The notes: a model not told the origin generated them from the sequence alone. Positions 941 through 31,100 are shown, numbered from the stretch's first letter. The stretch: DNA of 37,146 nt from a virus (IMGVR_UViG_3300037584_004615:1-37146); one strand, 5' to 3'. Made by a program: numbers and translations.

Positions 941-2161
941 CTAATAGCCGCTCAGGGGTAAAAGCTCCCAAATTGGAAAGGCTGTCGTCTGTCCGGCAAT
1001 AGCACCAAATGTTCCGTCATTGCCATTATCTGTATGGTCTCTAATGCTAATTCCGGTGCCTTCATTGAATTTCCAATATCCTACAAGCCCACTTTGACCA
1101 TTACTTTGATGGTCATAATTAACTCCACCATTGTACACCTCATTAGCAAAAGTTCCCTCTGAATCGATACATCTATTATAAATAGCTACTTCATCAAGAG
1201 CACAAGCAAATCCGCTAGTATATCCTGAACCTTCAGTATTACGACCTCCAAAATACATTGTCATACCTTCATCTTGATTATTCCAAGAAGTGCTATTGTT
1301 ATTAGTCATTCTTGCATCTGTATTTACCCAGAGTCTAAGCTTCCTATTACCAGCAGAACCTTGAGTACCAGTATATGATACTACCCAATTATACCATCGA
1401 CCTACTTCCATTGGATTGTTAATTCCAGTAACATCATTGCCCCCAACACCTATCCCAATATTATTATCGCCGGCTCCTGAAAAACCAAAATGAAATCTCG
1501 CAACTGGACTGCTGGCTCTGCTGCCTAATATAACCGATTTTTGATTCATTTCTTCATCTGGTCTAACCCAAAAAGAAATAGTAAACCCATTCCAAAGTTC
1601 GTAAGTATCAGGATTAAAGGTAGTTGTAGCATATGAGTCAGTGGCTCCGGCCCTGTCGCCTGAAAACGATAACGCATAATTATTTTCCAGCCTTCTCTTG
1701 CCTCTCGTGCGATGACGGCGACTTGCCATTAAATTATCACGTTTGAAAATTTGCACGGCATATTCAAAATCTAAATCAGCCAGTCTTTTATTGAGTGGGT
1801 CAGATAGCCAAGCACGCCAATCAAGCACCCCAAAATACGGCTCACGATTTTGAATTATAATTTGTATCTCTTGAAGTCTAACATTTTCTCGTAGACGTTT
1901 GTCTTCCTCCAACTTAGATATCAGGGCGTCAACCTGCTTACCTATCCGTTCTGATTCTAGTTTTTCTTTTTCTTGAAGTCGTTTCTGACGAAGGCGCTCC
2001 GCTTCCTTCTGCTCTCGAAGAAGTTTTTTACGTTCTATGGCTTCTTTTCGCTTTTGAGCTTCGGCTGCCTCTCTTTCAGCTTTTCTTTTAGCCTCTTCGT
2101 CGGCCTCACGTTGCCGTTCTTCTTGCCAGCGCCTTTGTTTTTCTCTGATGTAATCTGACAT
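941..2161 (-). CDS. Charged helix/coiled-coil protein with C-terminal LamG (concanavalin-like) domain
   Basis: 406 aa in three parts. Residues 1-105 are almost entirely Glu, Arg, Lys, Gln and Ala (for example EEAKRKAEREAAEAQKRKE), which predicts a long single helix or coiled coil. Residues 106-160 form a linker ending in a basic patch (SRRHRTRGKRRLE). Residues 161-390 match the LamG/concanavalin-like fold: YALSFSG, FTISFWVRPDE, WYNWVVSYTG, LRLWVN, ALDEVAIYNR and GLVGYWKFNEGTG are the family's typical strands. Such domains bind glycans or mediate contacts, and in phages they often sit on fibres or capsid decorations. There is no signal peptide. Unlike the nine genes upstream it lacks the capsid-targeting start, although a broken copy of that tag lies directly before it. 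No good ribosome-binding site precedes the ATG, so translation may depend on coupling. Exact role unknown. Confidence 0.8.
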   Translation of the reverse strand: MSDYIREKQRRWQEERQREADEEAKRKAEREAAEAQKRKEAIERKKLLREQKEAERLRQKRLQEKEKLESERIGKQVDALISKLEEDKRLRENVRLQEIQIIIQNREPYFGVLDWRAWLSDPLNKRLADLDFEYAVQIFKRDNLMASRRHRTRGKRRLENNYALSFSGDRAGATDSYATTTFNPDTYELWNGFTISFWVRPDEEMNQKSVILGSRASSPVARFHFGFSGAGDNNIGIGVGGNDVTGINNPMEVGRWYNWVVSYTGTQGSAGNRKLRLWVNTDARMTNNNSTSWNNQDEGMTMYFGGRNTEGSGYTSGFACALDEVAIYNRCIDSEGTFANEVYNGGVNYDHQSNGQSGLVGYWKFNEGTGISIRDHTDNGNDGTFGAIAGQTTAFPIWELLPLSGY

Positions 2162-2165
2162 ATTT

Positions 2166-2192
2166 CTACCAATCTGTTAGGAGTTTTTTCAT
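2166..2192 (-). pseudogene. Remnant capsid-targeting tag ending in an amber codon
   Basis: The ATG at 2192 overlaps the TGA of the preceding gene as ATGA, exactly as at the other junctions of this cluster. It reads MKKLLTDW and then TAG at 2168-2166. The peptide matches the tag MKKLLTEWRKY of the two genes immediately upstream, with the stop where R9 should be and KY still present after it. After the stop the frame soon ends at another TGA, so suppression of the amber would not restore a gene. The start of the LamG gene lies four bases beyond the stop in another frame. It is either a decayed tenth member or a short leader that couples translation into the LamG gene. Confidence 0.6.
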
Positions 2193-2665
2193 TCTACGGT
2201 GTCCCAAAATTTTGTGGCTCGGTCGCCATAAAACTCGCAAGTGTTGGTCCAGTTGGTATTGTTGTCTATGACCTCCTTGATGTAGTCCAAACTATCGGGG
2301 TCATCAATCACATAACTAAACACTAGGTAGTCTCTACCTTCCTTGGGTTTTTCTGCGGAATCGGTAGTCAATCCCAGTGGAGCCACTGAGCCAACTTCTT
2401 CTCGGGAGATTTCGCCACGAGTATCATAATATTTTCCATTACGATAAATGGCTGTATGATAAATGTCAAACTCTTCTGAGGGATTACCTGAATCTAGTTC
2501 TGGGTCTGAATCCACAACAAAGACAACTTCCGTGCCTTTTATCCCACGGTTGATTGCCTCCTGTAAAAGAGCGACTGCTAGTGTTCCACAGTTTCCATAT
2601 AGTTCAGGATCAAGGCTTTCCTCTTCCTTTAAATACTTCCGCCACTCTGTTAGTAGTTTTTTCAC
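2189..2665 (-). CDS. Putative internal protein with Cys-His-Asp hydrolase-like core
   Basis: 158 aa starting at GTG, which shares its G with the TAG of the upstream gene (TAGTG). The first 14 residues are the tag MKKLLTEWRKYLKE, with a predicted cut after E14. After it comes YGNCGTLAVALLQEAI with C26 at the start of a helix, then a strand EVVFVVD, then IYHTAIYRNGKYYDTRG with H70 and D81. A Cys at a helix start followed by a His and an Asp on adjoining strands is the arrangement of papain-like and transglutaminase-like enzymes. I infer a cysteine protease or related hydrolase, but no specific family can be named. The C-terminal half is acidic. If packaged, it could enter the host with the DNA. 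Confidence 0.68.
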   Translation of the reverse strand: MKKLLTEWRKYLKEEESLDPELYGNCGTLAVALLQEAINRGIKGTEVVFVVDSDPELDSGNPSEEFDIYHTAIYRNGKYYDTRGEISREEVGSVAPLGLTTDSAEKPKEGRDYLVFSYVIDDPDSLDYIKEVIDNNTNWTNTCEFYGDRATKFWDTVE

Positions 2666-2952
2666 TATAACTTGCCCGATAATAAATCTTCGATACTAGC
2701 ACCTAGATTCTGTTGAAGAGAAGCCTCCATCTGTTTCATCACCTCTTCAAATTCTTCAGGTGTTCGACCAGTTTCGGCGGGCCAATCATCCATATCAAGA
2801 ACCCAGTCTTGACCAGCATCATCTAGGGCGTTTTCAATTTCCATCTTTTTTTCAGCATACTTAACATAATCGACATCCCTGTCAACAGATGCTTCTACAT
2901 CATAGTCAAATTCTTTCAGATACTTTCGCCATTCTGTTAATAGTTTTTTCAT
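2665..2952 (-). CDS. Small acidic protein with capsid-targeting tag
   Basis: 95 aa, with its ATG overlapping the upstream TGA as ATGA. The first 14 residues, MKKLLTEWRKYLKE, are identical to those of the next gene, yet the coding DNA differs at six positions in codons 2-14, all synonymous. After the tag the protein is strongly acidic (Asp/Glu-rich, for example ALDDAGQDWVLDMDDWPAETG) and mostly helical in appearance, without Cys or a membrane segment. No family is recognised. An acidic partner for the basic proteins of the cluster, or a DNA mimic, is conceivable but unsupported. Confidence 0.65.
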   Translation of the reverse strand: MKKLLTEWRKYLKEFDYDVEASVDRDVDYVKYAEKKMEIENALDDAGQDWVLDMDDWPAETGRTPEEFEEVMKQMEASLQQNLGASIEDLLSGKL

Positions 2953-3776
2953 ATTCCCACAGCCTCTGGGTATTTTGTTTTAGCGAACGCAATATATTTA
3001 TCACGCAGTTCTTTGTAAAAGAAGTCGTTAAGTTCTTCTTCTGTATATTTTACTCTAAACTCGCCGGGAGTTTCTTTCTCGTCTTCGGCGTTCATCTTGT
3101 CTCGGCGGCGGCGGAACATATCAAAGAATTGCTTGAGACGCATATCCAACGCTTCTGTGTAAGGTATCTTATAATACTTTGCTCTCTTGTAGGCTTCTTT
3201 GGTGTAGGTATCTGTTTCTGAATCCGAAGCATAATATCCACGAATACCATCTAACTGGTTATAATTCCATCTGCCCGGCGGTTGTAGCGGTTCTTTGGGC
3301 GGCTGGGCAGTGGCCAACATATCATCAGTTTGTCCGCCGTGTTGGATTTCGTGGATAGTGACTGCTTTAAGTTCACCAAGATAGGCGTTAAGGTCTTGCT
3401 CGTTGAAACCTATGTCTAAAAAACTATTGATTTTTATGTAGTCGTCTTGCTTACCTGCGCCGGGAATGCTCATATGCATTCCGCCTATTTGAAACTTGTC
3501 GCCTGTTTCTTCCGCTAGTTTTTTATCAATATGGAAAGTAAACTCAGCCATATACATTATACCTTCAAGTTCTTTTGGAAGACCTTTACCTTCTTGATAT
3601 TTCTTGCCGATTACGAGAATCAAATCCTTGCGTGAGTTTTGAACACCCTCACTAGGAATAACCTCGTCAATAATATATTTGACGTGAGGTATCACCTTGC
3701 GGGTCAGTTCTGTTGTGGCTGCTTCGTACCTTCCCTCTTGGAGAAAGCCTCGCCACTGTTCCATAATCAACTTCAT
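2949..3776 (-). CDS. Putative packaged zinc metalloprotease (HEIQH)
   Basis: 275 aa. The tag MKLIMEQWRGFLQE (predicted cut after E14) precedes a domain with the zinc-peptidase signature VTIHEIQHGGQ, where H142, E143 and H146 fit HExxH. About 40 residues downstream, GYYASDSETDTYTKEAY has E187 in a position suitable for a third zinc ligand. That spacing suits a gluzincin-like enzyme, although the exact family cannot be fixed by eye. The region before the motif (MAEFTFHIDKKL, then a strand-like stretch) would form the usual sheet. The C-terminal part is charged (MFRRRRDKMNAEDEKE). The gene overlaps both neighbours by ATGA. It may process virion proteins in the head or act on host proteins after injection; the sequence does not tell which. 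Confidence 0.75.
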   Translation of the reverse strand: MKLIMEQWRGFLQEGRYEAATTELTRKVIPHVKYIIDEVIPSEGVQNSRKDLILVIGKKYQEGKGLPKELEGIMYMAEFTFHIDKKLAEETGDKFQIGGMHMSIPGAGKQDDYIKINSFLDIGFNEQDLNAYLGELKAVTIHEIQHGGQTDDMLATAQPPKEPLQPPGRWNYNQLDGIRGYYASDSETDTYTKEAYKRAKYYKIPYTEALDMRLKQFFDMFRRRRDKMNAEDEKETPGEFRVKYTEEELNDFFYKELRDKYIAFAKTKYPEAVGI

Positions 3777-4240
3777 GATTTAGGCAGATCCCTTGGTGCG
3801 ACGATCGTGCCATCATAGTCTTTTTTAATATATTTTGCCAACATCCTCGTCATATCCATGTCTTCTAGGCGTTCGTTGTCGTTCTTTCCCTCAATAGCTT
3901 TAGCAACATCTTGTAAAAATCTTCCCTCTATTTTATCGTCTATGACTTTAGAAACTTCGGGATCGATCATAAGCTTGTCTAAAACCTTATTTCGCTTGGC
4001 TAGTCCTGGGTCTTTTTGCGACTTCTGCCATAGGAGCTTCAAAATAGGAAAAACTCCACCAGTAGTGATATCAGCAGCGCCTTGAGCCGCTAGCGCACCT
4101 GTTTTTCCAATGTCTCTGATATTCTTTGCGGCTTTTGCTTGTGCTAAAACCTTTCGTAAATCACCAATTGTTTCAAACTCCACAAAGCCCGTATCTTGCT
4201 CTGAAAGATATTGTCTCCATTCTGTCATTATCTTCTTCAT
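3773..4240 (-). CDS. Putative internal protein, unknown function, helical
   Basis: 155 aa beginning with the tag MKKIMTEWRQYLSE, a good L-S-E site at residues 12-14. The rest is predicted to be mainly helical: FETIGDLRKVLAQAKAAK, then an Ala/Gly-rich stretch (GKTGALAAQGAADITTGGVF) that is amphipathic rather than a full membrane span, then DPEVSKVIDDKIEGRFLQDVA. No catalytic motif is visible. The Ala/Gly segment could interact with membranes, as for some ejected phage proteins, but this is a guess. ATGA overlaps on both sides place it firmly in the operon. Confidence 0.62.
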   Translation of the reverse strand: MKKIMTEWRQYLSEQDTGFVEFETIGDLRKVLAQAKAAKNIRDIGKTGALAAQGAADITTGGVFPILKLLWQKSQKDPGLAKRNKVLDKLMIDPEVSKVIDDKIEGRFLQDVAKAIEGKNDNERLEDMDMTRMLAKYIKKDYDGTIVAPRDLPKS

Positions 4241-4977
4241 CGTGATTGTACCGTGTAAGTTTTTTGCTCACCGCCTCCAAATGTGTCAGTTTTAAAATCG
4301 TCCTTGCGCATCACCGTAATTACTTTTATGGTGTCCGGACCTTTACGCATATCTAAAACGGCTATGACATTAAGGGCTGGGACCTTACCTTTGCCGACCA
4401 TACGAATATGAAAAGGCTCGTCGTTACCAAGTTCCCCGTTAGCATAATCTTGAATAATTTTACCGATGGCCATCTCAACTGCCTGGATAATGGCTTTGTT
4501 GGATATCTTTTCGTCGTGACGGAATTGGCGTTCTTTGCTGTGCTTGGTTGCCTCAAGGCCTGTATCTTTTAGATTAATAACAACATTCACACCCCTAACC
4601 TTTGCGCTATACGCTTGCTTAGCGTCGAGGTCAGCCATCTTGTCTTCTTTGACTTTTGGTTTGTCGTGAGTATAACCTTTTTTATCAAGTTCTATATGGC
4701 GTTCGTAAGTCTTTGCCATTGTGCCCTTGCCAGTTTTAGGGTTATACATCATATGAGGTTTAAAATCTTCTTTTGATTTTTTATCCTCCATGAGATGGTC
4801 GGCTGGTCGTCCTTGACTTATCCAGTCTTCTATGACGAACATTTTTTGGTCTTCCGACAAATTCCAGAAAACCTCTTGGAGTTCTTCGCTCAAGCGAGAG
4901 GCGTACTGTTTGTAAGTTTGATCGTTTACTTTCTGTATGTGCTGGAACTTTCGCCAGTTCTCCATTAGAAGCTTCAT
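4237..4977 (-). CDS. Putative internal protein with possible BECR/DUF4258-like nuclease fold
   Basis: 246 aa. I place the start at the ATG at 4977, because it gives the cluster tag MKLLMENWRKF and lies just past the upstream TGA; the open frame further upstream runs against the neighbouring gene. The tag is atypical: residues 11-14 are FQHI and not FL-x-E, and the nearest such site is L29-S30-E31. Residues 75-103 contain a linker-like PKTGKGTMAKTYERH...GYTHDKP. At 146-164, HSKERQFRHDEKISNKAI resembles the H-xx-ER-xx-R...I pattern of DUF4258/BECR-fold RNases, followed by strands FHIRMVGKG, LNVIAVLDM and IKVITVMRKDDF. Nuclease activity is therefore a tentative inference. The stop overlaps the next start as ATGA. 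Confidence 0.66.
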   Translation of the reverse strand: MKLLMENWRKFQHIQKVNDQTYKQYASRLSEELQEVFWNLSEDQKMFVIEDWISQGRPADHLMEDKKSKEDFKPHMMYNPKTGKGTMAKTYERHIELDKKGYTHDKPKVKEDKMADLDAKQAYSAKVRGVNVVINLKDTGLEATKHSKERQFRHDEKISNKAIIQAVEMAIGKIIQDYANGELGNDEPFHIRMVGKGKVPALNVIAVLDMRKGPDTIKVITVMRKDDFKTDTFGGGEQKTYTVQSR

Positions 4978-4978
4978 A

Positions 4979-5518
4979 TCAGCCGCCTTTATACATCGTT
5001 GGGTCAATTGGTTCTGGATCGAGTGCTGCTTTAAGATTTCTCTTTTGCCATTCATATGAGTCTTTGTCTTTATCAATTGGCCCACCTGCTGCCCAGGTAT
5101 TACAAGACCTCGCCGAATGGCATTTGAATTGGTGCATCCAGCAGTAACCCAGAACCCCAAACTCATCTCTGACAGGTTGCGAAGTTTTTCCGGGTATACA
5201 AGCCACCATCCTTGGTGATATATCAAAAGCAGTGCATGAGGCGCACTTGGACTTCATAGCAGCCTTCTCAGACGTGCCCCACTTCTTTGCTATGTTTTTC
5301 CAAAAATCTCCAGGCTTCTCTACGTTAAGTGGCCCATATTTAATAAAGTCAACTTTAATGGCTCTGTCTCTATTGGCTGTATTTAACATCAAATCCTGCG
5401 TAGGAGCAGGACAAATTTTTTCTTTACCACCAACTTTTTTACCTTCTTCCTCAGCGTCAATAATAATCTTTATTGACTCGCCAAGAAATATTTTCCATTC
5501 TGCTAATAATTGCTTCAT
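4979..5518 (-). CDS. Cys-rich metal-binding putative internal protein
   Basis: 179 aa from the ATG at 5518, chosen because it gives the tag MKQLLAEWKIFLGE and shares one base with the upstream stop (TGATG); a TTG two codons earlier is unlikely. After the tag and a Lys/Glu-rich segment comes a dense cysteine region: C92-A-S-C95, C108, C126 with H129 (GYCWMHQFKCHSARSC), C133, H134 and C139. The pattern suits zinc or an iron-sulphur centre in a compact domain ending SCNTWAAGGPI. I recognise the shape but cannot name a family. The domain could bind DNA or form a redox site. It lies directly before the BECR-like gene, separated by one base. Confidence 0.65.
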   Translation of the reverse strand: MKQLLAEWKIFLGESIKIIIDAEEEGKKVGGKEKICPAPTQDLMLNTANRDRAIKVDFIKYGPLNVEKPGDFWKNIAKKWGTSEKAAMKSKCASCTAFDISPRMVACIPGKTSQPVRDEFGVLGYCWMHQFKCHSARSCNTWAAGGPIDKDKDSYEWQKRNLKAALDPEPIDPTMYKGG

Positions 5519-5889
5519 CACCAAGCCCTACAGGACCAGTAGCGAGCTTTTGTCTTGGGTCCGGGATTATCACAATTGTGACGAGCACGAAATGACTTAC
5601 GTCGCTCTGGATTTGATTTTTTAATTTTCATATTAGGGTCGCCGAAATTTACTTTCTTAACGTTTCCGGTTTTGGGGTCTTTAACATATACTTTAGACTT
5701 CTTGACATCACCACGCATCGGTTTGTTAAGAGTGACCTTACGTCCCTGGTATTCTGCCTCTTCGATGACATCATCCCAAAACTCCACGTCTTCAGCCATA
5801 GTGCCATCGTCATAAGTGGCATCCTCAATATGATAATACTCTTCCTCTTCGTTGAGGAAATGATTCCATTCTTTTAATAATTGTTTCAT
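5518..5889 (-). CDS. Basic putative internal protein with Arg/Lys-rich C-terminal domain
   Basis: 123 aa with the tag MKQLLKEWNHFLNE and a predicted cut after E14. Residues 15-48 are strongly acidic (EEEYYHIEDATYDDGTMAED). Residues 49-123 switch to a basic domain: GRKVTLNKPMRGDVKKSKVYVKD, then GDPNMKIKKSNPERRKSF, then RARHNCDNPGPKTKARYWSC, with C106 and C120. The charge and motifs suggest nucleic-acid binding. The CDNP string also occurs in the 59-aa protein at the head of the cluster. ATGA overlap upstream and TGATG downstream. No function is established from the sequence. Confidence 0.66.
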   Translation of the reverse strand: MKQLLKEWNHFLNEEEEYYHIEDATYDDGTMAEDVEFWDDVIEEAEYQGRKVTLNKPMRGDVKKSKVYVKDPKTGNVKKVNFGDPNMKIKKSNPERRKSFRARHNCDNPGPKTKARYWSCRAW

Positions 5890-6752
5890 CCTTTTTTACC
5901 TGCCTTTGATTTTTTACCATAGCTGCCTTTTTCACCACAGGCTGCTGGGGTGGGTCTGCACTTCGGATATTTTGATCGCTTCTCGCCACCGGATCTTCCG
6001 CAGGCACTACATTTCTTTCTGCCTGTCTTTTTATCCTTGCGGCAAGTGTTACAGTCAACCCAGCCGCTTTTACTTCCTTTTGCACCCTTTCGCTTAAACC
6101 AGTCACGAAGACTTGTTTCAGAAGAAGGCTTCTTAGTTAGCTTTCTCTTCTTTTCTTCAATGGTTTCATCTTCAAGATTTTCATCTTTCTTAACCGAGTT
6201 GATATATTTTCTATACACGGCTGCTGCGCTGGCCTTGCCGGCAGCTTTAGCACGTTGCTCCATTGCTACCGCCGCTTGGACTTTATGGGCGTGCGAACGG
6301 CTGGAGTTTTTAATCTTGGATACGCTTTTCTTTGCGTCTGCTTCGGTAGCGAACTTCAGTCCGTGGATTGTACCCTTCGGATCTTCGTCGGTATAAAGGT
6401 CGCTGTGTTTTTTTGACTTTTTCTTTTGTCCCTTTTTTCTTGGGATGCGAGGATTACTTTTTTTTTCGTTTAACTCTGAAATGGTTTCACGAATCATATC
6501 ACGAAGTGGGTCTTGTTCAATGCTCTCTTTTTTGCTTTTGTTACCCCAATTGGCAGCGCCAACTTTACGGCATTTTACAAGAGCACCCGATGCATACGCA
6601 GAAGGCCAGACGTCGTAACGAGCTTTAACCTTATGGTAACAAGCATCTTTCTTGCCCCCGCTCTTTTTCTTTTTCTTTTTTCGTTTTTTCTTCTTCTCAG
6701 CAAGGAGAGCCTCCTCAACCATACCTCGAAGTTGTGACATAGTAATTTTCAT
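5886..6752 (-). CDS. Modular Lys/Arg-rich DNA-binding-like internal protein, possible polyprotein
   Basis: 288 aa with the second tag type, MKITMSQLRGMVEEALLAE. Cutting after E19 would leave a mature N-terminus of eleven consecutive Lys/Arg (residues 20-30). Three modules follow. Residues 36-72 contain YDVWPSAYASGALVKCRKV. Residues 97-190 contain HSDLYTDEDPKGTIHG and SRSHAHKVQAAVAMEQRA. Residues 212-288 begin SLRDWFKRKG and contain C234-x2-C237 and C248-x2-C251, which could form a zinc ribbon. Between modules 1 and 2, residues 82-97 (PLRDMIRETISELNEKK) resemble the tag itself, and LEDETIEEKKRK separates modules 2 and 3; both offer I/L-x-E sites. I infer DNA binding or condensation inside the head and possibly cleavage into several products. 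Confidence 0.7.
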   Translation of the reverse strand: MKITMSQLRGMVEEALLAEKKKKRKKKKKKSGGKKDACYHKVKARYDVWPSAYASGALVKCRKVGAANWGNKSKKESIEQDPLRDMIRETISELNEKKSNPRIPRKKGQKKKSKKHSDLYTDEDPKGTIHGLKFATEADAKKSVSKIKNSSRSHAHKVQAAVAMEQRAKAAGKASAAAVYRKYINSVKKDENLEDETIEEKKRKLTKKPSSETSLRDWFKRKGAKGSKSGWVDCNTCRKDKKTGRKKCSACGRSGGEKRSKYPKCRPTPAACGEKGSYGKKSKAGKKG

Positions 6753-6775
6753 ACACGAATACCTCTGGAATATAA

Positions 6776-6955
6776 CTAGTTCTTTCGTTCCCCTTTTTTA
6801 CTCCTAGTCCGCTGGTTTTTGCAAAACTGCTTCATCGTAAAACCTTTGGGATTGTCACATTTTTCTTTTCTTTTATTTCGCTCTGATTTTGAGAACTTCT
6901 CCTGGAAAATAGCCTCCCTAACAAGTCCCCTTAGTTGATTCATAGTAATACGCAT
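6776..6955 (-). CDS. Small basic putative internal protein, first gene of the cluster
   Basis: 59 aa from the ATG at 6955 to the TAG at 6778-6776. It starts MRITMNQLRGLVREAIFQE, 12 of 19 residues identical to the tag of the next gene, with a candidate cut after E19. The remaining 40 residues are highly basic (KFSKSERNKRKEKCDNPKGF and on to RTRSKKGERKN) with two Cys (C33, C45). It stands 15 bases after the methyltransferase stop and 23 bases before the next gene, a gap that holds an AGAGG. The tag, composition and context support a real gene despite its length. Confidence 0.68.
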   Translation of the reverse strand: MRITMNQLRGLVREAIFQEKFSKSERNKRKEKCDNPKGFTMKQFCKNQRTRSKKGERKN

Positions 6956-6970
6956 ATTCTATGTAGTATG

Positions 6971-8209
6971 TTATCTTTCAAATTCTACTGGTATCCACAC
7001 ATTGTCTGTTTCTGTTTTGGCCCATTTTTCAAACTCTTCAAAATCTAAGTCATCAATCCAATCACCAATTTGTAATTTCCAAGTTCCAGCCCTAGTTCTG
7101 CCAGACGGATAGTAGGTAAAGTGAGGGTTTTTGGCTAGTGACAAGAGAGTGGGGTAGTCAGGCTTGATCTGGATAATGTCCTCACATTTTTCTCGCCTGG
7201 TGTGAAAACCATTAAAAGTGAACGATGTAGAATTATATCTAACAAGTATATCCCCAAAAGGATGCTCAGTCATATAAAAATTAACGTCACTAATTTTGTT
7301 TGATTTTTCATATTTATCGATTAAATTAAACAGCAGAACTTCCCTACTTCTTTCTTGTCTTGTAATAATTTCTGTGTCTTTAAGAACATACTTAGCCATA
7401 AATTCCATTATGGCACCAAATGCTCCTGACCAATGATGGTCTTCTAAACAAAACAAATCCCCACACAAAAAACCACCCGGCTTGATCTTTTTAAGCCAAG
7501 TAAAAATATCTACCTTAGTCTGCTCATAAGTCAAGGCCCAGTCTGAAAAAACAACGTCAAAGTATTCATTTTCAAACTTTTCTGCTGCATCTTGGGAAAA
7601 GCTTTGCAAAACTTCAACTTTTGGATTGTCTTTAAAAAGATCTTGCACCGCTTCTCTATTTGCTTTGGAATTAAACCAAATCTGCTCGTCTTCGTTAACT
7701 AGATCCCAAGGATCGATAAGGTATAGTTTTTTAGGTTTAGAAAGCGGAATGATTAAATCAGAGGCCGTGCCTGCTTTGTCAACCCCTAATTCAACAATGG
7801 TTGAATCATTAGGTAAGCTTTTCCAAAATTCGTCTCTTAGTTGCTTAAATGGCTTATCCCAAGGCATCGCAGGTGGTGAGCCAATAGTCTGGTGTTTTTG
7901 ATCTACTAACCCTGCCATAATAAGAAGTGATCCATATTTTTCGAAGTATTCGCTCGTATTAGGTCTGTTAGAGAATACTCTAGTGTAACTACTTGGATCG
8001 TATTTTTCCATGTCTGTAAGGCAAGTAAGAACTGAATGAGTATCAACATATCTAACATATCTGATTGGCTGTACAGACAGGGAACCAACAACAGTGTCTG
8101 GATGAAACCATAGTGCGCCCATATCATTAGAAATGGACTTTTCTGCGTTCGAATAATACAGAGTAATTATTCTTCTTTGCCAATTCGGATAAAGATCAGG
8201 AGGGATCAT
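6971..8209 (-). CDS. SAM-dependent methyltransferase (class I fold), substrate unknown
   Basis: 412 aa. The central part, about 137-260, has the Rossmann pattern of class I methyltransferases: STIVELGVDKAGTASDLI as the SAM-binding loop region, KKLYLIDPWD as the acidic strand-2 end, VEVLQSFSQDAA, then FDVVFSDWAL and LKKIKPGGFLCGDLF. The Met_24-like arrangement is typical of small-molecule, sugar or protein methyltransferases. I see no DPPY or PCQ motif, so DNA methylation is less likely. The N-terminal 130 residues and the C-terminal 150 (ending WAKTETDNVWIPVEFER) are not recognised. The ATG at 8209 follows AAAGGTCACAA, a good ribosome-binding site, 11 bases after the primase stop. It lacks the capsid tag. 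The substrate could be a nucleotide, a surface sugar or a host protein. Confidence 0.72.
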   Translation of the reverse strand: MIPPDLYPNWQRRIITLYYSNAEKSISNDMGALWFHPDTVVGSLSVQPIRYVRYVDTHSVLTCLTDMEKYDPSSYTRVFSNRPNTSEYFEKYGSLLIMAGLVDQKHQTIGSPPAMPWDKPFKQLRDEFWKSLPNDSTIVELGVDKAGTASDLIIPLSKPKKLYLIDPWDLVNEDEQIWFNSKANREAVQDLFKDNPKVEVLQSFSQDAAEKFENEYFDVVFSDWALTYEQTKVDIFTWLKKIKPGGFLCGDLFCLEDHHWSGAFGAIMEFMAKYVLKDTEIITRQERSREVLLFNLIDKYEKSNKISDVNFYMTEHPFGDILVRYNSTSFTFNGFHTRREKCEDIIQIKPDYPTLLSLAKNPHFTYYPSGRTRAGTWKLQIGDWIDDLDFEEFEKWAKTETDNVWIPVEFER

Positions 8210-9168: not shown

Positions 9169-9774
9169 TCACAGTCCAAGTTCTTTTAGTTGCCTAATCG
9201 TATTATCCACATTATCTGGATCATGTTTAATAGCAATGCCGCCGCCAGCACGGAACTCGTTGACGTACTTATCACGGTCATCAATCAGAAGTCCTTGTTT
9301 TCCGTTCCAAACTCCGTAAGGCTTCTTGCTATCGGCCAAGTTAACTTTTTCAACTGGCAGTCCTAACTCACGAGCGACCCAGATCCGCTTGCCGATCTTA
9401 GAACCCTCAGCCATCGGAGCAGACAAAATCTCCAACCCTGGGATGTCTTTGATGTAATCCCAAAGTTCTTTGCCGCCACGCTCCCAGCCAAGATTGGCCC
9501 AGAGGTCAACGTCGTCTTCAACCATTCGGTACATAAAGTCTCGAACACGATAGTTCCGAGGCAGGCTACTCTCTTGGTCAGAGCGAGCAATGTGCCACTT
9601 GTTAATCACCACGTCCCAGCCGCCGAGTTCTTTGGCTGCCGAACGGGCAAGTTTATAATCAGGATGATCAGGCTCGTGGCGAAGTTCTCGCAGTCGCTTG
9701 TTCATATAACTTAGGACGCCTTCTTCAAAATTGACAAGCACGCCGTCCATATCACTAAACACTTGGTATCTCAT
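9169..9774 (-). CDS. HAD-superfamily phosphatase, 5'-nucleotidase-like
   Basis: 201 aa from the ATG at 9774, chosen because GGAGG stands seven bases upstream; an ATG at 9792 would put that ribosome-binding site inside the coding region. Motif I is FSDMDGVLVNF with D8 and D10. ILSAPMAEGSKIGKR supplies the Ser of motif II and a following Lys, and GLLIDDRDKYVNEF the acidic motif near the end. The helical cap between them fits the C1-capped 5'(3')-deoxyribonucleotidase type common in phages, which remove phosphate from nucleotides or DNA ends. It lies in frame with the primase gene, separated by one TGA, and has its own promoter. The exact substrate is not determined. Confidence 0.83.
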   Translation of the reverse strand: MRYQVFSDMDGVLVNFEEGVLSYMNKRLRELRHEPDHPDYKLARSAAKELGGWDVVINKWHIARSDQESSLPRNYRVRDFMYRMVEDDVDLWANLGWERGGKELWDYIKDIPGLEILSAPMAEGSKIGKRIWVARELGLPVEKVNLADSKKPYGVWNGKQGLLIDDRDKYVNEFRAGGGIAIKHDPDNVDNTIRQLKELGL

Positions 9775-9779
9775 AGGGA

Positions 9780-9790
9780 CACCTCCCTCC
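9780..9790 (-). promoter_or_regulatory. Strong ribosome-binding site fixing the HAD start
   Basis: The minus strand reads GGAGGGAGGTG here, complementary to the 16S rRNA tail, with seven bases between its last GGAGG and the ATG at 9774. It is the best ribosome-binding site seen in the window and rules out the ATG at 9792 as the start. Confidence 0.85.
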
Positions 9791-9796
9791 ATAAGT

Positions 9797-22103: not shown

Positions 22104-25100
22104 TTAATATCCACCGCCGCCGGATCCCCCGCCGCCGAAGCTGCCACCTCGATTAACAGGGGGGACAGGTGCTGAACTTGGTGCTTCCTGAGCTTGACGA
22201 GGTTCCCTGGATTTTGCTAATTCTTCTGTTCTACGACGCTCCATTTGTGCAGGTGTCATATTTCTAAACTCCTCAGGGAGATCTCCCTGTTGTGCTTTGG
22301 CTACGTCAAATTGTTCAGGAGATGGCGGTGCCTCGCCAGCAAATGGGTCAATTTGATCCTGTCCAATTGGAGGTGGTGCCATACCTTCAGGCGGTAGATC
22401 ATCCGGAAGCAATGGTATACTTTCTGCGCCTGGTGCTGTTGGGCGGGTATCTAAGTCTGGTATTATTTCGCCTGCGCCGGCTGGTGGTGCGGGCCTCGGC
22501 AGAACTAATCTTCTTTGTTCTAGTTGTTTATTTTCTAAAACTTTTTTATTTCGCTGTCCACGACTTCTAGCATTTGTTTCTTGCTCTTCGGATATGTCTT
22601 CAATTTCCCGATCAAGTTCTGGTCGGAATCCGACATTGACAGACAGTTTTCCTAGTTCAACTAAAGAACAATAATCATAAGGCCAGTTATAGGTATTGCC
22701 AGCGATACCAAGATCATCACTGACAAAGAGTCCCTTAGTGTATTCAGCTTTTCTTCTTTGTAAGAAATCTTTTTGCTCTTGTGGTAAATTATCAGCTATG
22801 ACACCAAACACGCTATCATAAGAGAAAGATCCAGGTCCGCCATTTAATTCTTCTGAAACAAACCTAAAGAATGTGTCAACACCACGCTCCTTGACTTTAA
22901 ATATCATCCATTTTATTTCTGGTATAAAGCCATCTCTAGAACCCAAAGGAGCAACGTCTATAAGATCAACTCTAGGATGTCCATTTCTTGGTATGCCTAA
23001 TTCTAATTCTTTTAGTAAAAGCTCTGGGAACACAGTCTTGTTGCCTACTCCTGAAGATCTTTCACCTGGCATATAGTGATCTATGGCCGATACGCTTGTC
23101 TTCATTGTAGCGGCGATATCTGGCATAATTCCCTGCCATATATCCGCCAAATCTTGTCTGGATAAGGCGACTGTGTGCTCTAAAAGATAGACAATAGGTA
23201 TATTAACGTCTTCTTCTGTTGGCAGTATAGAATCATAATCATCTCCACCAAAGGGATTTATAAACTTAGAAACTTTTGGAAAGTTTGGCGGCAACAAGGA
23301 CGTTAGTTGTTTCTTAAGAGAAGGCGGTAAAGAATATTTTGTAAAATTCTTTCTAAACTCCTTGACTTTTGGACCCAAGGCATCCATATTGCCTTTCAAT
23401 GTCATAACTTTCATTTCTTGAGTTGTAGGCTCTAAATAGTATGGTATGGCTAGCACAGCTTCAGAAATTGTTTTTTCTCCGCTTTCAGCTAATTGTCCTA
23501 GTCTTCTTGCTTTTTCTGGTTGGAAGGTTCCCGGAGCTTGTATGTCTCCTTCAGAGAATCCTACCAACCTAGCTAATGAATCGACCTCTCGCCCAGAGTC
23601 AATAACAAATTTAGGAACCTTTCTAACTACTTCGACTTTTGCAGTACCAGACAAAACAATACCAGTAGCCTCGTTAACTCGTTGAGCACCGGACCCGGTT
23701 GGGTTACCTAAAAGTCTTAACTCAGTTGAATCAACGGAAACATCTGATATAAACATAAACACACCTTCGACAGATGATGATGGCATAACCCCATACTGGT
23801 GCCACATTCCTGTTACCTTCGGATCATGTTCTCCAACATTCACAGATGCGCTAAAGTTATATCCGCCATCCGTTGTTGGAAAATCTAATATTGGGCACTC
23901 CCACTTGGGCATAATCACCCATTTGTTTTGATCTCTTGGAGACACATCGGCTGCATCTGTAGGATAAACATTATCAATAACCACTGAAGAATCTAAATCC
24001 TGTCTATTTTGCCAAGCACGATTAAACCCATAGGCCGGAACACCGTCAAGACTTAATATTTGATCGTTGGCTCCAATAAAAGAGCCCGAGTCAAAATCAT
24101 AGTAGTAGCCATTTTCATTATTGTATTCAACAAACAATTCCTCGCCACTCAATATATCGCTAAGAGTTACTTCGCCAGACTTGCGTGGAACATAGGTTAT
24201 TCTTACAACGCTTGGTCCGTAAAAATATGTTGGAGCGTATGGAGCAAATTCTGCTCGATGGTAAGGCCATTCTCTACCTTGAGGAACACCACCACTTTGT
24301 TGTGTAGTGGCAACTGTAAATAATGGTGCTAATTGCCCGCCCGCAAATGGACCCGCAACAGTTACGCCGGCTCCAGCCTGGTCTGGATCAACAGCAGATC
24401 CAACTATTTCATTGCCATTAAATTTAGCCGTTAAGAGTCTTTGTTTTACGCTTACAACTCCGGTTGAACCATTAACAGACGTTGTTGTTTTGAAATCTCC
24501 ATTAGTATCGGCTAAAACTAGACAGTTTGCAATTGCATTTCCAACAGCAACCTGATCAGCGGCACCTTGACACCCTATGGTGTATTCCGCTGCGCTAACT
24601 TTTGCAGGGGACCCTGGTGCTACAGTCTTAGAAAATTCAAAATTAACTGTAACAGTTGTGCCATCGTTACTTGATCCTGTCATTCCAATAAATTTGCCGT
24701 CCAAAATATTCTCGTCAAACGTATTAATCTCTAGGCTAGCTGTTGCTTGTGCTCCATATTCAACAGTTGCAGGAGTAGTGGCACCTGGGCCAGCAGCGAG
24801 CATTTCATTCCAGTCAAATGATCCAGTCGCAGTCGCAGGACCAAACGCTGCTGGGTTACTATACATCATATGTCTATCGGTCTGTTTCATACCAATTTCC
24901 ATAATGTATGCTTTATCCTTAGATACCGTTACAGTTCTAGCCTCATTTTGCTGAGTTGCTGCGGCACCTGCGGGATTATCTGCTGGTGCTTTAGCAGGTA
25001 TTTCGGCGACAAACTTGGACATAAACCCACCATCTTTTTTCTTTTTAAGGAAAAATCTTGGAACGTTTGCCATAAAGTTTGACATTCCTAGGCGGTACAA

Positions 25101-28100
25101 ATCGTCATCAAATTTAACAAATGATACTGATGATTCCAGCCCGCTGTCGCCCTCGGTAACACTTGTGACTAAAGCACCGGTCGTTGGTACTGAGGCTGTA
25201 ATTTCCTGATATAAAACGGGATTTGAATCGGCTAACACAATTCCTCGTTTATCAGATGAAATGTGCTCCATTGGTTTGAAAATCCCCTCGAATGGAACAA
25301 CATCAGAATAAAACATGCGGTGTGGTGCGCCACGGTTACCGTCTTTGAGTTGGTCACCTTCAACCGCTACGTCTAACTTGAAGAAATCAAAGTTATCAGC
25401 CGCACCCTCTTTTCTTCTTCTGCGCCCACCTGGCAAAGTAATAGCAGTTTCAGAAGCCCCTGACATCTGCAAGTCGCCGGTTGCTAAAGAGAAAAAGACC
25501 GAGGAACTAAGCTGCCCCGCAAGAGGATCTTGTATTGAGGCAGAGGTAAACGCACTCATACCCTTTCGAAGTATAGGATAATGAACAGCCACCCCGGCCT
25601 TAATAGAGTTGTATACAATCCCTGGTGCAAAAAATGGACGGGATATTGTTCTGAAAGAACGTGGGTTCTTATCGTCATTTTCACCTGGAGTTGTGGATGT
25701 TATATCTTTAAAGTTAGGTGCCCCTGGTGTGTAGCCTTCTCCAGAATATTCAATCGCAGGTCCATATGATTGCGAAAATAATCTAGCCAATTCTAAAGTT
25801 CTTAAAACAGGATAAAAACCCTCATAAGGCAAAAGCTTTAACAACGCTTCTGATTTAATCTCAAGATGTCTTGGGTTTTTATTGAATTCAAGATCCTTAG
25901 AGCCTGGTTTCATAAATGACTTTAGGTACTCAACAGCATCACTAGTTGCATACCTAGGCAGAAAATCTCTGTCGGCACTAGTAAAGGTAGAGTTTGAACC
26001 TGTATCATTGGTGGTCCCGGTCACACTTAAAGCACCTGAAACAATAGTTCCAAAACTACCAAGTTCTTTATATGTGGGCATAAGTTCACTGATGCGATAC
26101 TCAGGGATAATTGTAAAATCTTTGCCAAGGTTTCTTAATTCTTGTTGCCAATCTTCGTAGCTATTATACCACGGAAATCTAGCTGGTGCAAGAGTATTTT
26201 TCTTTGGCCCATCAACAAATTTTCTTCTTCGAGCAGCGGTCCAAGCAGGTCTTGTAACTGCCCCCGCAACAGCCATTGGCTCAGCAATAAACTTCGATAA
26301 ACCATTGGCTAAGTCAGTTGTGTATATTTTTTCCGTTGGTACACTATAAACATATTGAGGGGAGTTAATGCTCGAAGTATTAAATCTAATACCGCCAAGT
26401 TCTGAACTACTATTAGCAGCATTACCACTCATCACAATACCATAGTGTGGCATCATAAGTTCGCCCGCTGGCATAGTAGAAGCCATAACGAATAATAGGT
26501 TATTGCCAGGACTTGTTCCACTATAAGAAGATGTTGCTAGGGTACCTGAAAACTCTGAGTAATAGAAAGAATCCAAAGGCCACATAGATCCAGTCCCAGG
26601 GTTTCTGCGATTTTCACCGTCAACATAGGGTGTTGTTTTTACTGGAGGTATGTAACCTTGGTTACCAGAAGTGTTACCTTGGAATATCGGTATTGGGAAC
26701 TGTTCATCCATTTTTACAAAATAATCAAAGGATGAAGAGAAGTTAGTAACTCTTCTTTCCCAAGAGTTGTTAAATCGTTCTATATTCTCATCGTGCAATA
26801 ATCCCGAAAGCTCAGTGATGTTCCTAGCAATTAGCTCTGTCTTTGAGCCTGTTGGAATATCTGATCTCCAGAAACTATTTCTATAGAAGTTTCTTGCTCT
26901 TGTTGCCGACAGATAAGTATAAATTTCTTTTGGATATATTGTCTCTTTATAACTCATTAATTTGATAAGTTCTACGCCATCTACAGATGGGTCAACATTA
27001 TCAACGAACGTGTCCCTAATAACTTCATATGGTCTTTTAAATGCACCAAGCTTAAAGTCTTGCTTGTTACCTAAATCTATATTAAGGCCTCTGTTTGCAA
27101 AACCCTGTAATTCATTTCCGTAGGAATATTTAACAGTCACATCAACAGATTTATCTTCTGTCGATGCAGCAGTGCCACGCCTTGTTTTTATCTGGTGTAA
27201 CACTGGCTTATATCTTGATGTAAGAGGCGGCTCTTTATATTTCTTAGAGATGTGATGTCTTACAATATTACCGCCGCCGCCAGGGAAAGATACTAAAGCA
27301 TTATCGTTATCTGTTACTAGCGACTTAGCAAAGTCTGTAAACACTTTCATCTTTTCAGAGGTCATTAATTTTTTACCACTTTGCTGCTCAACAGACTCTG
27401 CTTTCTTTGTAACATTAGCAGCGTCAATAAGATAAAAGTTTTGTCTGGCATTAAACATACCCTTAGTGGTAAATTGTCCATACCTTGTTTGTGTCCAAGG
27501 TGCCCACAATCCTGCACCATTACGCTCCCAAATGTATGTTATTCCACCAGCAGAGTTACTAAATACACCACTAGCTTGGGAGGCAAAAGATCCAGGATAC
27601 AAGCGATATTTTTCATCGTGAGCTATAGAGGATGTATATAAAGTAATGTCCTCTGGGAATCTAGAGGATGACAAAATAAAGTTGTGATAATTATCACCAA
27701 CGTTCTGCCCAGGATGATCACCAGGTGTACCTTGTGAATGAGACAAGGCCAGGAACCAAGCATAGCGATCGCCAGCAGGTATTGGTCTTGTAACAAAAGC
27801 ATTATCTCTAACAGATCCGGTTGTCATAATCGGTACTAAGGGTGATTGCAAATTACCTGATACAAGTTCAACTCTCAGCGTGGTGTTTCTTTGTGTCTTG
27901 TGAATAGCCACTAACGAAGCTGTGTGTATGGAAAGATCATCGCCATAAACAGCAGGTAAACCGCCAGACGGTATGACAATACCCTCATTAAATACACCCA
28001 GGTCTATAGAATCATATCTGTCTAGTAATGTCACTAACGATGAGGTTTGGAACCCGCCAAAGCCTGTGTGTCTCTTTAGTAAGGTGTTATACCGTTGTCT

Positions 28101-31100
28101 AACTTTTATGTTTCTAAATGGCAGCGCATTATTTGGAGAAAATTGATCAGATGCTCTGTCTCTAAATAACTGTTTAGAATCTTCTTTACTGCCAGGGGCA
28201 GAGAATCTATCAGCTATAATTGTATTGTTTGTTCTAACTCCCGACCTTTGTCTTGGGGCCGTAAACTCAGCCGAGCCAGATAGCCCCTGGGTTCTTCTTG
28301 GAACAGAGGTTAAAAACGCAGTTGGCATTGTACCGGTGGGAAGCGAACTTGTATGATAAGCATCCGGGTTGAATACAAAATCAACATTAGTAGCGGCTCG
28401 ATTGTTCGTATTCAACACCTCATAAAATTTAGTAAAGTTACCTAGAACTCTAACACCACCTACTGGCGATATGGTTCCAGTTGTCGATTGAATGTTGGCA
28501 AGGTTAACTGGACTAGAAGCACCAGTGCCACGCTTGTATTGACCTTTGGGCGTCAATGCTGTTGGTTTATCAAATTCACCGGCACCATCAGCAATTTCTA
28601 GTTTATATGATTCTTTACGAACATTATCTGACTGGTTTAACTGTGCTCCCACAGGAGCGGAACGAGCCTGTTGTCCACCAACATGTGCCAAAGTAAATGG
28701 TGATTGAAGTGCTGTGGGCCTAACATGCAGATTAGAAAAATCAACATTTGTCAGACCTGCATCCTGTAGTTGCTTTTGATAACCTGCGTGTACTGTTGAA
28801 CTAACAGGAGTAAATGGCAAAACCACCTGCCCCTTAACATCTCTCTCGTCAACAGACGCACTTAGTTCTCTTTGCCTTTTTACGTTCGGAACAATAACGT
28901 CCTTAACATCCTGATCTAACGTAAGTCCACCAAATTTTACTTTTGCGTTTGCTACTTCAGTTTTTGATTCTTTAACATTGCCGATACCTTGGTTTGTCGG
29001 GAGATTCTCTTGAGGTAAGAAAGCCCCTATCGAAACTAATCGATTCGGTGCATAATAAGATTGTGCTTGTTTAAATATTGCTCTTCTGGACGCTTGAACC
29101 CCGGCGTCGGATTGACGAATAGTAACAGTGTCTCTTTCAGCACGAGTCATCCACCACCAGCGGTTTTGGTTTTCTGGAGGGGGTGATTCTGGTAATGGTG
29201 CTCTTTTCTTTTTGTATGGTATTGGATCAATAAACCCAGAACCTTGCGGCGAGGACACAACCAATCCTTTTGGTACCGCAACGTTGGCGGGAGGATTAGT
29301 TGGTCGTCCAGAGTTAATTTGCGCTTGTTCTGGTCTCTCTGGTGCATCTGCATCGTGAATTTGTAATCCGGCCGGCTCAGGAGTTGAAATAACATTTGCT
29401 TCATCGCCACCAGCGACTGATTGACGAGTTGATTTTTTACGATTACCCATAAATGTGTAATTAAATTTAGCTCGTTCCAACAGGTGACTTTCAACTATGT
29501 TTCTAACCCCAGGCGCAACTTTTGCCGAGGCAGGGAAAAGTTGTTCTAGCATCTGCCCAAGCGCAGCATCTAACCACTTGTAGTAATCAATATATTTCTG
29601 TAGATCTGGAATGTTGCCAACTTTTGAAAAGAATATCTGTCTAAGTTTCTCCATAGACTTATAGTTTGGCCTGTACCTGTTTACTGGGTCACCTATTAGG
29701 TTGTTTAACTCTTCTACCGAGGCAAACAAGTGAAGCATTCTTTCTGAAACGCTCCTGTACATACTCTTCTCTACAGCATAGAAAAGTCTCTCTGGTCTTA
29801 TCATTGGTGCATATGCTTGATCGTCCAGGTTTTTTACTTGCACCATATCGCTACTAATAGCATATTCTGGCAGTTCAAGCCTATCAGTATAAAGAAGTTC
29901 TTTTCTAATTGGCTTCCCAGAGGCTGGGAAGAAATCACCCCTACCTGTATGTTGTCTAGAGTTTATATGTTGTGGTGATTCATGAAATAAATCACCAGCG
30001 CTGCCAGAGTTCAAAGACCCTGATGAAAAATCGTTTACATTAAATCGACCCGAAGCGTCACTTCCTGTTACATCTGCAAAATCCCAATGCACTGCTAAGG
30101 TGTCTGCTTGTGGTACATATATTCCAGGGTTCTTACTTTGGAAAGTGTAGGCCTGTCTAGTTGGGTTAAGCGTCCCGTAACTATCAACACTTCTAGCATG
30201 CATATCAATAGCACCTGTAGGAAGGACATCTGTCCAGTACCTGAAACTAGATGCTCGTACATCACTAGCAGTTAATACAGTGCCAGTAAAGTTAGTTCTG
30301 TGTGCTCCAATATAATATCTTTTAGCTGCCGAAATGATATCTGAACCAGACTTGTATGTTAGCGATCCGGTCTTAAAATAACTCTCTTGTCTTATACCCG
30401 AGTCGTAATTAACAGCGTAAAAGTCTATGTCATACCCATCGTGGACATTTGCATTGGCCCCTGAGTTTTGTGCAAAAGGAAATCTTTTTGGGTGAACCGA
30501 TAATGCGAAGTTCCATTTTTGATTGTCATATACGTTTCGGAATACAGGCGAAACTATTAATTCATTGTTGTGCCTATCAACAACTTTAAATAATACGTCC
30601 TTAACCTTGTAGTTGGGTGATATCACCTCAGCCATTTGTGACGCAGATTTAATTGCAACCACATGTAAGCCAGCATCAGCCTGGGCTCCAAGGAAGGTTG
30701 TATCTGTAGACGAAGACAAAAGCTTATGCTCACCCTGAGGCGTGTGCCAACCAAATAGTGATGAAGTTATGACTTGATTAGGTGTATAAGAGAGTGTATC
30801 AATTTCTTTTTTGTTCGGGAACACAAACTCACACTGCGCAGTAAAGCCAAATTCTATCAAACTTAGACTTCCACTACTACCACTTATGATACCATATGAT
30901 TCTGGTAAATCAGAATTGGGATATTGATAAATGGTTGCCTCTGAGGAGTCCCTATCTACTAGCCCTGTAAAATCTGCGTACTTCTTATTACTTGTATCGA
31001 CTCTATAGTTGTTATCAAGTTTGTATATCGAATTATCAGAATAAACATTTACTTTTACTATTTCTTCATCAACTCCAAAACAACGAACCAAGTTTCTAAT

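What the first reader, a model, noticed from the sequence alone, without database searches (positions are those of the whole stretch)
2189..6955. Array of nine genes that share a predicted capsid-targeting and cleavage tag
Nine adjacent genes with unrelated bodies start with one of two short related peptides. In six, residues 11-14 are [FY]-L-x-E, exactly the [LI]-x-E class of site that T4 gp21 uses to remove capsid-targeting tags from internal proteins and Alt; in the two QLRG types, E19 plays that part. W8 is present in all seven of the W type. The layout suggests a modular system: any protein placed behind the tag goes into the head, is trimmed and can be injected. T4 has a few such proteins; nine in a continuous overlapping operon is a large set, with enzymes among them. 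Packaging is inferred from analogy.
Basis: partly seen in the sequence, partly recalled or inferred. Interest (0 to 1): 0.9.

Follow-up and report, generated by a model that had tools for sequence, protein, structure and literature searches.

The report
Phage cargo genes sharing a head-entry tag
A marine T4-like phage carries nine adjacent genes for unrelated proteins that all begin with the same kind of 14-residue tag; by sequence the tag matches the short removable address that phage T4 uses to load proteins into its head, so these are probably a set of proteins carried in the virus particle and delivered into the bacterium.

Summary
Seven ORFs start with M[KR]x[LI][LMI]xxWxx[FY]LxE (W tag; g5 lacks the LxE) and two with M[KR]ITMxQLRGxVxEA (K tag). 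A tag profile trained only on other genomes picks exactly these seven starts in the window. There is also a tenth, vestigial tag with a stop codon (2192-2166).

I found 22 related IMG/VR records with 194 tagged ORFs in 87 body families. Arrays sit at the same place in collinear genomes while the cargo turns over. The same body occurs behind either tag (98% identity). Selecting on residues 1-9 alone, residue 11 is aromatic in 52/55, 12 is LIVM in 50/55 and 14 is Glu in 52/55; conservation then stops. Those positions match, spacing for spacing, the T4 IPIII residues shown to control targeting (4, 7) and processing (8, 10).

All 8 relatives that contain the head-gene block have the T4 gp21-type (S77) protease and Gp23 capsid protein; the other 14 records lack both. 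Cargo in relatives includes ADP-ribosyltransferases, kinases and a nucleotidase.

Best reading: a T4-type capsid-targeting/cleavage tag on a large exchangeable cargo set. Packaging, cleavage and injection are inferred. The idea is known from T4; the scale and two interchangeable tags are new.

The parts
6776..6955 (-). g1, 59 aa, K-type (QLRG) tag MRITMNQLRGLVREA; body homologous to the C-terminal part of a W-tagged protein of G012
   Evidence: 74% identity over 43 aa
5886..6752 (-). g2, 288 aa, K-type tag MKITMSQLRGMVEEA; Lys-rich, phrog_727-like (unknown function)
   Evidence: homologues in 8 related records
5518..5889 (-). g3, 123 aa, W tag MKQLLKEWNHFLNE; its body occurs behind a K tag in G011
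4979..5518 (-). g4, 179 aa, W tag MKQLLAEWKIFLGE|S; Cys/His-rich conserved body
   Evidence: L4, E7, W8, E14 of the tag invariant in 8 homologues; 8-aa indel between tag and body
4237..4977 (-). g5, 246 aa, W tag without the LxE site (MKLLMENWRKFQHIQKV); homologues in G001 and G012 also lack it
3773..4240 (-). g6, 155 aa, W tag MKKIMTEWRQYLSE|Q
2949..3776 (-). g7, 275 aa, W tag MKLIMEQWRGFLQE|G; HEIQH (HExxH) zincin-type motif invariant in 5 homologues
2665..2952 (-). g8, 95 aa, W tag MKKLLTEWRKYLKE|F; no homologue in the 11 related records tabulated
2189..2665 (-). g9, 158 aa, GTG start, W tag VKKLLTEWRKYLKE|E; C26/H70/D81 suggest a cysteine hydrolase (motif only)
   Evidence: 95% identity to G001:183775
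2166..2192 (-). vestigial tenth tag MKKLLTDW* (stop where R9 should be), ATGA-overlapping g9; the only one in 23 records
941..2161 (-). LamG-domain ORF (Laminin_G_3, E 2.7e-16), untagged; its start codon lies in the remains of the tenth tag

Best explanation
The array is a cassette locus for internal head proteins of a T4-like (Gp23/S77-type) marine phage. Each protein begins with a 14-residue amphipathic tag. While the prohead assembles, the tag (W8 and F/Y11) binds the scaffold core, so whatever follows is enclosed in the head. The S77 prohead protease then cuts after E14 at [LIV]-x-E and frees the protein, which stays with the DNA and enters the next host cell at infection. The two tag types (W and K/QLRG) are interchangeable versions of the same address. 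Cargo genes are gained, swapped and lost behind conserved tags. Shown here: the shared tag and its conservation, two tag types on one body, collinear arrays with cargo turnover, co-occurrence with S77 and Gp23. Inferred: core binding, cleavage, packaging, injection.
For: Selecting ORFs on residues 1-9 only, 55 non-redundant tags have an aromatic at 11 in 52 (p 5e-50), LIVM at 12 in 50, E at 14 in 52 (p 1e-52), then conservation ends; A/G/S at 15 in 22 vs 21% background, p 9e-4 (entropy profile). T4 IPIII CTS is MKTYQEFIAE|A; suppressor work maps targeting to residues 4 and 7 and processing to 8 and 10 (PMC9026906), which have the spacing of tag residues 8, 11, 12, 14. The T4 gp23 cut is FLTE|A, and MAFFT aligns it with QLL[RK]E in the 8 clade capsid proteins. 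Clade proteases contain LLTE near their own N-terminus. S77 and Gp23 are in the same 8 of 22 records; in an independent set of 20 K-tag records 13 have S77, including all 9 with Gp23. Tag swap at 98% body identity. Arrays mix W and K (G012 KKKWWWWKWWWWK) with ATGA coupling. Collinear neighbours with cargo turnover. Some orthologues with divergent leaders keep the core: PWRKFLIQEA, NFRKFLTEAE, KWNRFINES. Cargo: ART-PolyVal, NT5C, zeta/AAA_33 kinase; T4 Alt is an injected ART (PMC9026906).
Against: No protein-level evidence exists for any of these phages. The window (37 kb) has no protease itself. P1' is often not small: in the window E, S, Q, G, F, E (although clade capsid sites also show T, Q, Y). 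g5 and its homologues keep the tag but lack the cut site. No T4-type late promoter was found at the arrays. The nearest cultured relatives Mel-JY01 and RM378 have no tags, so the scheme is not general to this head type. The tag and T4 CTS share spacing, not provable homology.
Confidence: 0.8

Rival explanations
1. The tag directs proteins to the particle or its core, but cleavage is not its point: the E14 motif is only part of a binding helix, and cargo stays attached.
For: g5 and homologues keep W8/F11 but lack LxE; P1' is variable in the window; the low-confidence models put a helix over residues 2-13 or longer.
Against: E14 is kept in 52/55 while residue 13 is free and conservation stops right after 14. 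In tags with a one-residue insertion the E moves along (FVLTEG, IIKEN). T4 needs 8 and 10 for processing, not targeting (PMC9026906).
Confidence: 0.1
2. The tag is a docking helix for a non-virion complex made during infection (for example a host enzyme, a replication or transcription hub), so the proteins act in the producing cell and are not packaged.
For: Many bodies look like host-takeover enzymes, which need not be packaged; no late-promoter signal.
Against: The tag fits a cleavage site of the resident head protease; arrays lie on the same strand as the head genes in the 8 records that have both; a K tag lies between protease and core gene in G007; the T4 mutational positions match.
Confidence: 0.08
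3. The shared start is only a translation or recombination device: conserved DNA at the start of genes in an ATGA-coupled operon, spread by homologous recombination, with no function for the peptide.
For: Tight coupling (43 of 139 junctions are ATGA) and apparent duplication and decay of tags.
Against: Codons vary freely while residues are kept: R9 uses CGA/CGG/AGA/CGC/CGT/AGG, L12 six codons, E14 both. The K tag replaces it on the same body. 23 records keep the peptide pattern.
Confidence: 0.02

Closest known systems
T4 capsid targeting sequence of IPI/IPII/IPIII and Alt, cleaved by gp21 (S77)
   Same: Short N-terminal tag on unrelated bodies; M-K start; aromatic, F, [LI] and E at identical spacing; S77 protease and Gp23 head in relatives; an ART (Alt) among the cargo; T4 also has a broken duplicate of a tagged gene (alt.-1/alt.-2 note).
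   Different: Tag is 14 rather than 10 residues with a different leader; two interchangeable tag types; up to 17 tagged genes per genome, often in coupled arrays, against 4 in T4; cargo not homologous to IPs; P1' looser.
SPN3US / phiKZ head propeptides
   Same: Head proteins trimmed after Glu by a related protease; injected proteins (PMC5694885).
   Different: A-x-E or S-x-E sites; mostly long propeptides; identical N-termini reported only for one paralogue pair.
P1 Dar proteins and DarB capsid targeting sequence
   Same: N-terminal signal sends an antirestriction protein and a reporter into the head (PMC9024508).
   Different: No consensus among Dar N-termini.
Polyvalent proteins
   Same: Predicted injected effectors with ART domains; three tagged proteins match ART-PolyVal (PMC5512222).
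   Different: Those are long multidomain chains; here each effector is a separate gene with its own tag.

Membership tests
T4-type CTS cargo proteins (IP/Alt class) | Short common N-terminal peptide on otherwise unrelated proteins | tested here: met
   194 tagged ORFs, 87 body families; T4 control recovers ipI-III
T4-type CTS cargo proteins (IP/Alt class) | Targeting residues: aromatic at E-6 and F at E-3 (IPIII Y4, F7) | tested here: met
   aromatic 60/60 at residue 8 (regex-selected set, so partly built in), 52/55 at residue 11 (selection on residues 1-9)
T4-type CTS cargo proteins (IP/Alt class) | Processing residues: [LI]-x-E, cut after Glu (IPIII I8, E10) | tested here: met
   LIVM 50/55, E14 52/55; g5 is an exception. 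Motif only; cleavage itself not observed
T4-type CTS cargo proteins (IP/Alt class) | Small residue after the cut | tested here: inconclusive
   A/G/S 22/55 vs 21% background, p 9e-4, but 33/55 have other residues; clade capsid site also loose
T4-type CTS cargo proteins (IP/Alt class) | gp21-family (S77) prohead protease in the same genome | tested here: inconclusive
   absent from the 37-kb window, present in 8/8 relatives that contain Gp23, two of them collinear with the window
T4-type CTS cargo proteins (IP/Alt class) | Protein found inside the virion, trimmed and ejected | not testable with these tools
   no proteome of such a phage available
T4-type CTS cargo proteins (IP/Alt class) | Late expression (TATAAATA promoters) | tested here: inconclusive
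   motif shows no link to arrays; clade may use another promoter
Polyvalent proteins | Several unrelated domains in one long polypeptide | tested here: not met
   tagged proteins are mostly 80-380 aa with at most one recognised domain

The most novel reading that the evidence does not exclude
Dozens of uncharacterised protein families would then be identifiable as injected head cargo from their first 14 residues.
Probability: 0.5. Interest if true: 0.78.

Novelty: new variant of a known kind. Interest (0 to 1): 0.64.

Why it matters
If right, 14 residues suffice to recognise proteins that a phage carries in its head and delivers at infection, in uncultured phages for which no proteome exists. 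It gives 87 candidate effector families, nearly all unknown, and natural tag-cargo fusions that show which bodies tolerate the tag. It also extends the T4 internal-protein principle from four proteins to arrays of up to 13 in one run, with visible gain, swap and decay of cassettes.

Tried and rejected
AlphaFold2 of g7 and g4: mean pLDDT 41.9 and 38.5, unusable, so no fold search was made. Pfam and PHROGs on the nine window proteins: no functional hit; g2 and g3 match PHROGs of unknown function (phrog_727, phrog_7595). PDB sequence search for g9 and g7: none. T4 late promoter TATAAATA: no link to arrays. tblastn of short tag peptides, a tagged ART start and g7 against cultured phages: no relevant match, though short queries are insensitive. 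W-tag pattern in GTDB genomes: 0. Pfam on the ART-like proteins of LR756508: no ART family hit, so that label rests on motifs only. I first took the 'untagged' homologues as evidence for tag loss; many turned out to carry divergent tags, so I dropped that claim. Position frequencies from my first regex were partly built in; one search repeats them with selection on residues 1-9 only.

Full report
Observation. The nine ORFs lie on the minus strand from 6955 to 2189. Seven (g3-g9) carry the W tag, two (g1, g2) the QLRG or K tag. Six of the seven have [FY]-L-x-E at residues 11-14; g5 lacks it. Junctions are ATGA or single-base overlaps, except one 1-base and one 23-base gap. A tag profile trained on other genomes, scored on 1800 possible starts of the window, returns exactly the seven W starts (18.7-41.1 bits); shuffled windows never exceed -0.25. 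Codons vary while residues are kept, so selection is on the peptide. A tenth tag, MKKLLTDW*, overlaps the end of g9 by ATGA and is broken by a stop at R9; the LamG gene starts inside its remains. It is the only such relic in the 23 records searched.

Relatives. A degenerate DNA pattern for the tag finds 28 stretches in IMG/VR; two codon-permuted controls find none, and a collection of 84,980 bacterial and archaeal genomes has none. I fetched 22 records (32-191 kb). Unbiased clustering of N-termini in four large ones returns the W and K tags as the dominant shared starts. The census gives 110 W-tagged and 84 K-like ORFs (the K regex is looser and may include a few chance hits), 194 in the body comparison, in 87 body families. 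Arrays mix both types, up to 13 in one 9-kb run in G012 (KKKWWWWKWWWWK). One body occurs behind a K tag in G011 and a W tag in G014 at 98% identity over 110 residues; the window's g3 is the W version.

Position. The window is collinear from gp25/gp6 to primase with G001, G003, G004, G006, G011, G012 and G014; primase is about 90% identical in most of these (56% in G004, where it lies elsewhere), while cargo differs: g8 and the LamG gene have no homologue in them, g6 only a 30% one, and g9 is shared only with G001. The site is therefore a cassette locus with fast turnover.

What the tag is. Selecting ORFs on residues 1-9 only, 55 non-redundant tags have an aromatic residue at 11 in 52, LIVM at 12 in 50 and Glu at 14 in 52; residue 15 is A/G/S in 22, twice background. 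Conservation ends at 14, and where a residue is inserted the Glu moves along. T4's IPII and IPIII begin MKTYQEFIAE|A and gp23 is cut at FLTE|A (sequences). Suppressor analysis of IPIII placed targeting at residues 4 and 7 and processing at 8 and 10 (PMC9026906). Counted back from the Glu, these are residues 8, 11, 12 and 14 of the W tag. Some orthologues with a different leader keep just this core.

The protease. The window has none, being a fragment. Of 22 relatives, 8 contain the S77 protease and the same 8 contain Gp23; the other 14 have neither, as expected of fragments without the head block. In 20 further records found by the K tag, 13 have S77 and all 9 with Gp23 do; none has an above-cut-off S78 protease. 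Clade capsid proteins align a QLL[RK]E motif with T4's cut site, and proteases and scaffolds carry LLTE and L[RK]EA motifs. The base rate of S77 in IMG/VR was not measured.

Cargo. In the window no body has a Pfam function; g7 has an invariant HExxH, g9 a C/H/D set. In relatives three tagged proteins match ART-PolyVal (E 6e-15, 1e-7, 3e-4; the last is below the Pfam cut-off), others NT5C nucleotidase and zeta-toxin/AAA_33 kinases. The G007 tagged nucleotidase has untagged homologues (29% or less identity) in G005, G006 and G016, and the window has an untagged one at 9169-9792, consistent with tags being added to ordinary proteins. Alt, the injected T4 ADP-ribosyltransferase (PMC9026906), is the obvious parallel.

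Limits. Packaging, cleavage and injection were not observed. Nearest cultured phages Mel-JY01 and RM378 have no tags; immuto has five K-like starts, one near its prohead protease, and the uncultured 484-kb LR756508 has 21 K-like plus about 25 with a third, shorter tag. No paper found in the library describes such arrays, but most subscription journals are not covered. The principle of CTS-carried diversity is stated in the T4 literature (PMC3012670; PMC9026906), so this is a new, much enlarged variant of a known kind, not a new kind.

Noticed in passing
window 2192-2166: Dead tenth tag MKKLLTDW* with the next gene's start codon inside its remains; parallels T4 alt.-1/alt.-2, annotated as a broken duplication of alt.
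   Followed up: yes
window 22104-32894: 3596-aa ORF on the minus strand next to baseplate genes, with an N-terminal stretch that reads like a LamG-type domain; by far the largest protein of the window.
   Followed up: no
window 6971-8209: 412-aa methyltransferase-like ORF between primase and array with no homologue in the related records tabulated.
   Followed up: no
LR756508.1 177696-337234 (L206-L214): 484-kb uncultured phage with about 25 genes behind a third short tag M[KR][LF]KxLLxE; many bodies share a YRG(T/S) motif as in ADP-ribosyltransferases, though Pfam does not confirm it.
   Followed up: partly
immuto MW353176.1 at 123311 and 109812 (L195, L196): Cultured Flavobacterium phage immuto has five K-like starts, one two genes upstream of its prohead protease, and a nucleotidase with a tag-like leader MKKVMGNLADLLLEES: the best cultured test case.
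   Followed up: partly
window 4977-4237; G001:184907; G012:7841: g5 family keeps the W tag but has lost LxE in three genomes: targeted but uncut cargo, or a scaffold-bound protein.
   Followed up: partly
clade Gp23, residues 20-37: The capsid propeptide has a conserved [AL][LI]xKWExTGLLEG stretch, as in T4 gp23 (ELLNKWKPLLEGE), that resembles the W tag; the tag may imitate a core-binding segment of the capsid propeptide.
   Followed up: no
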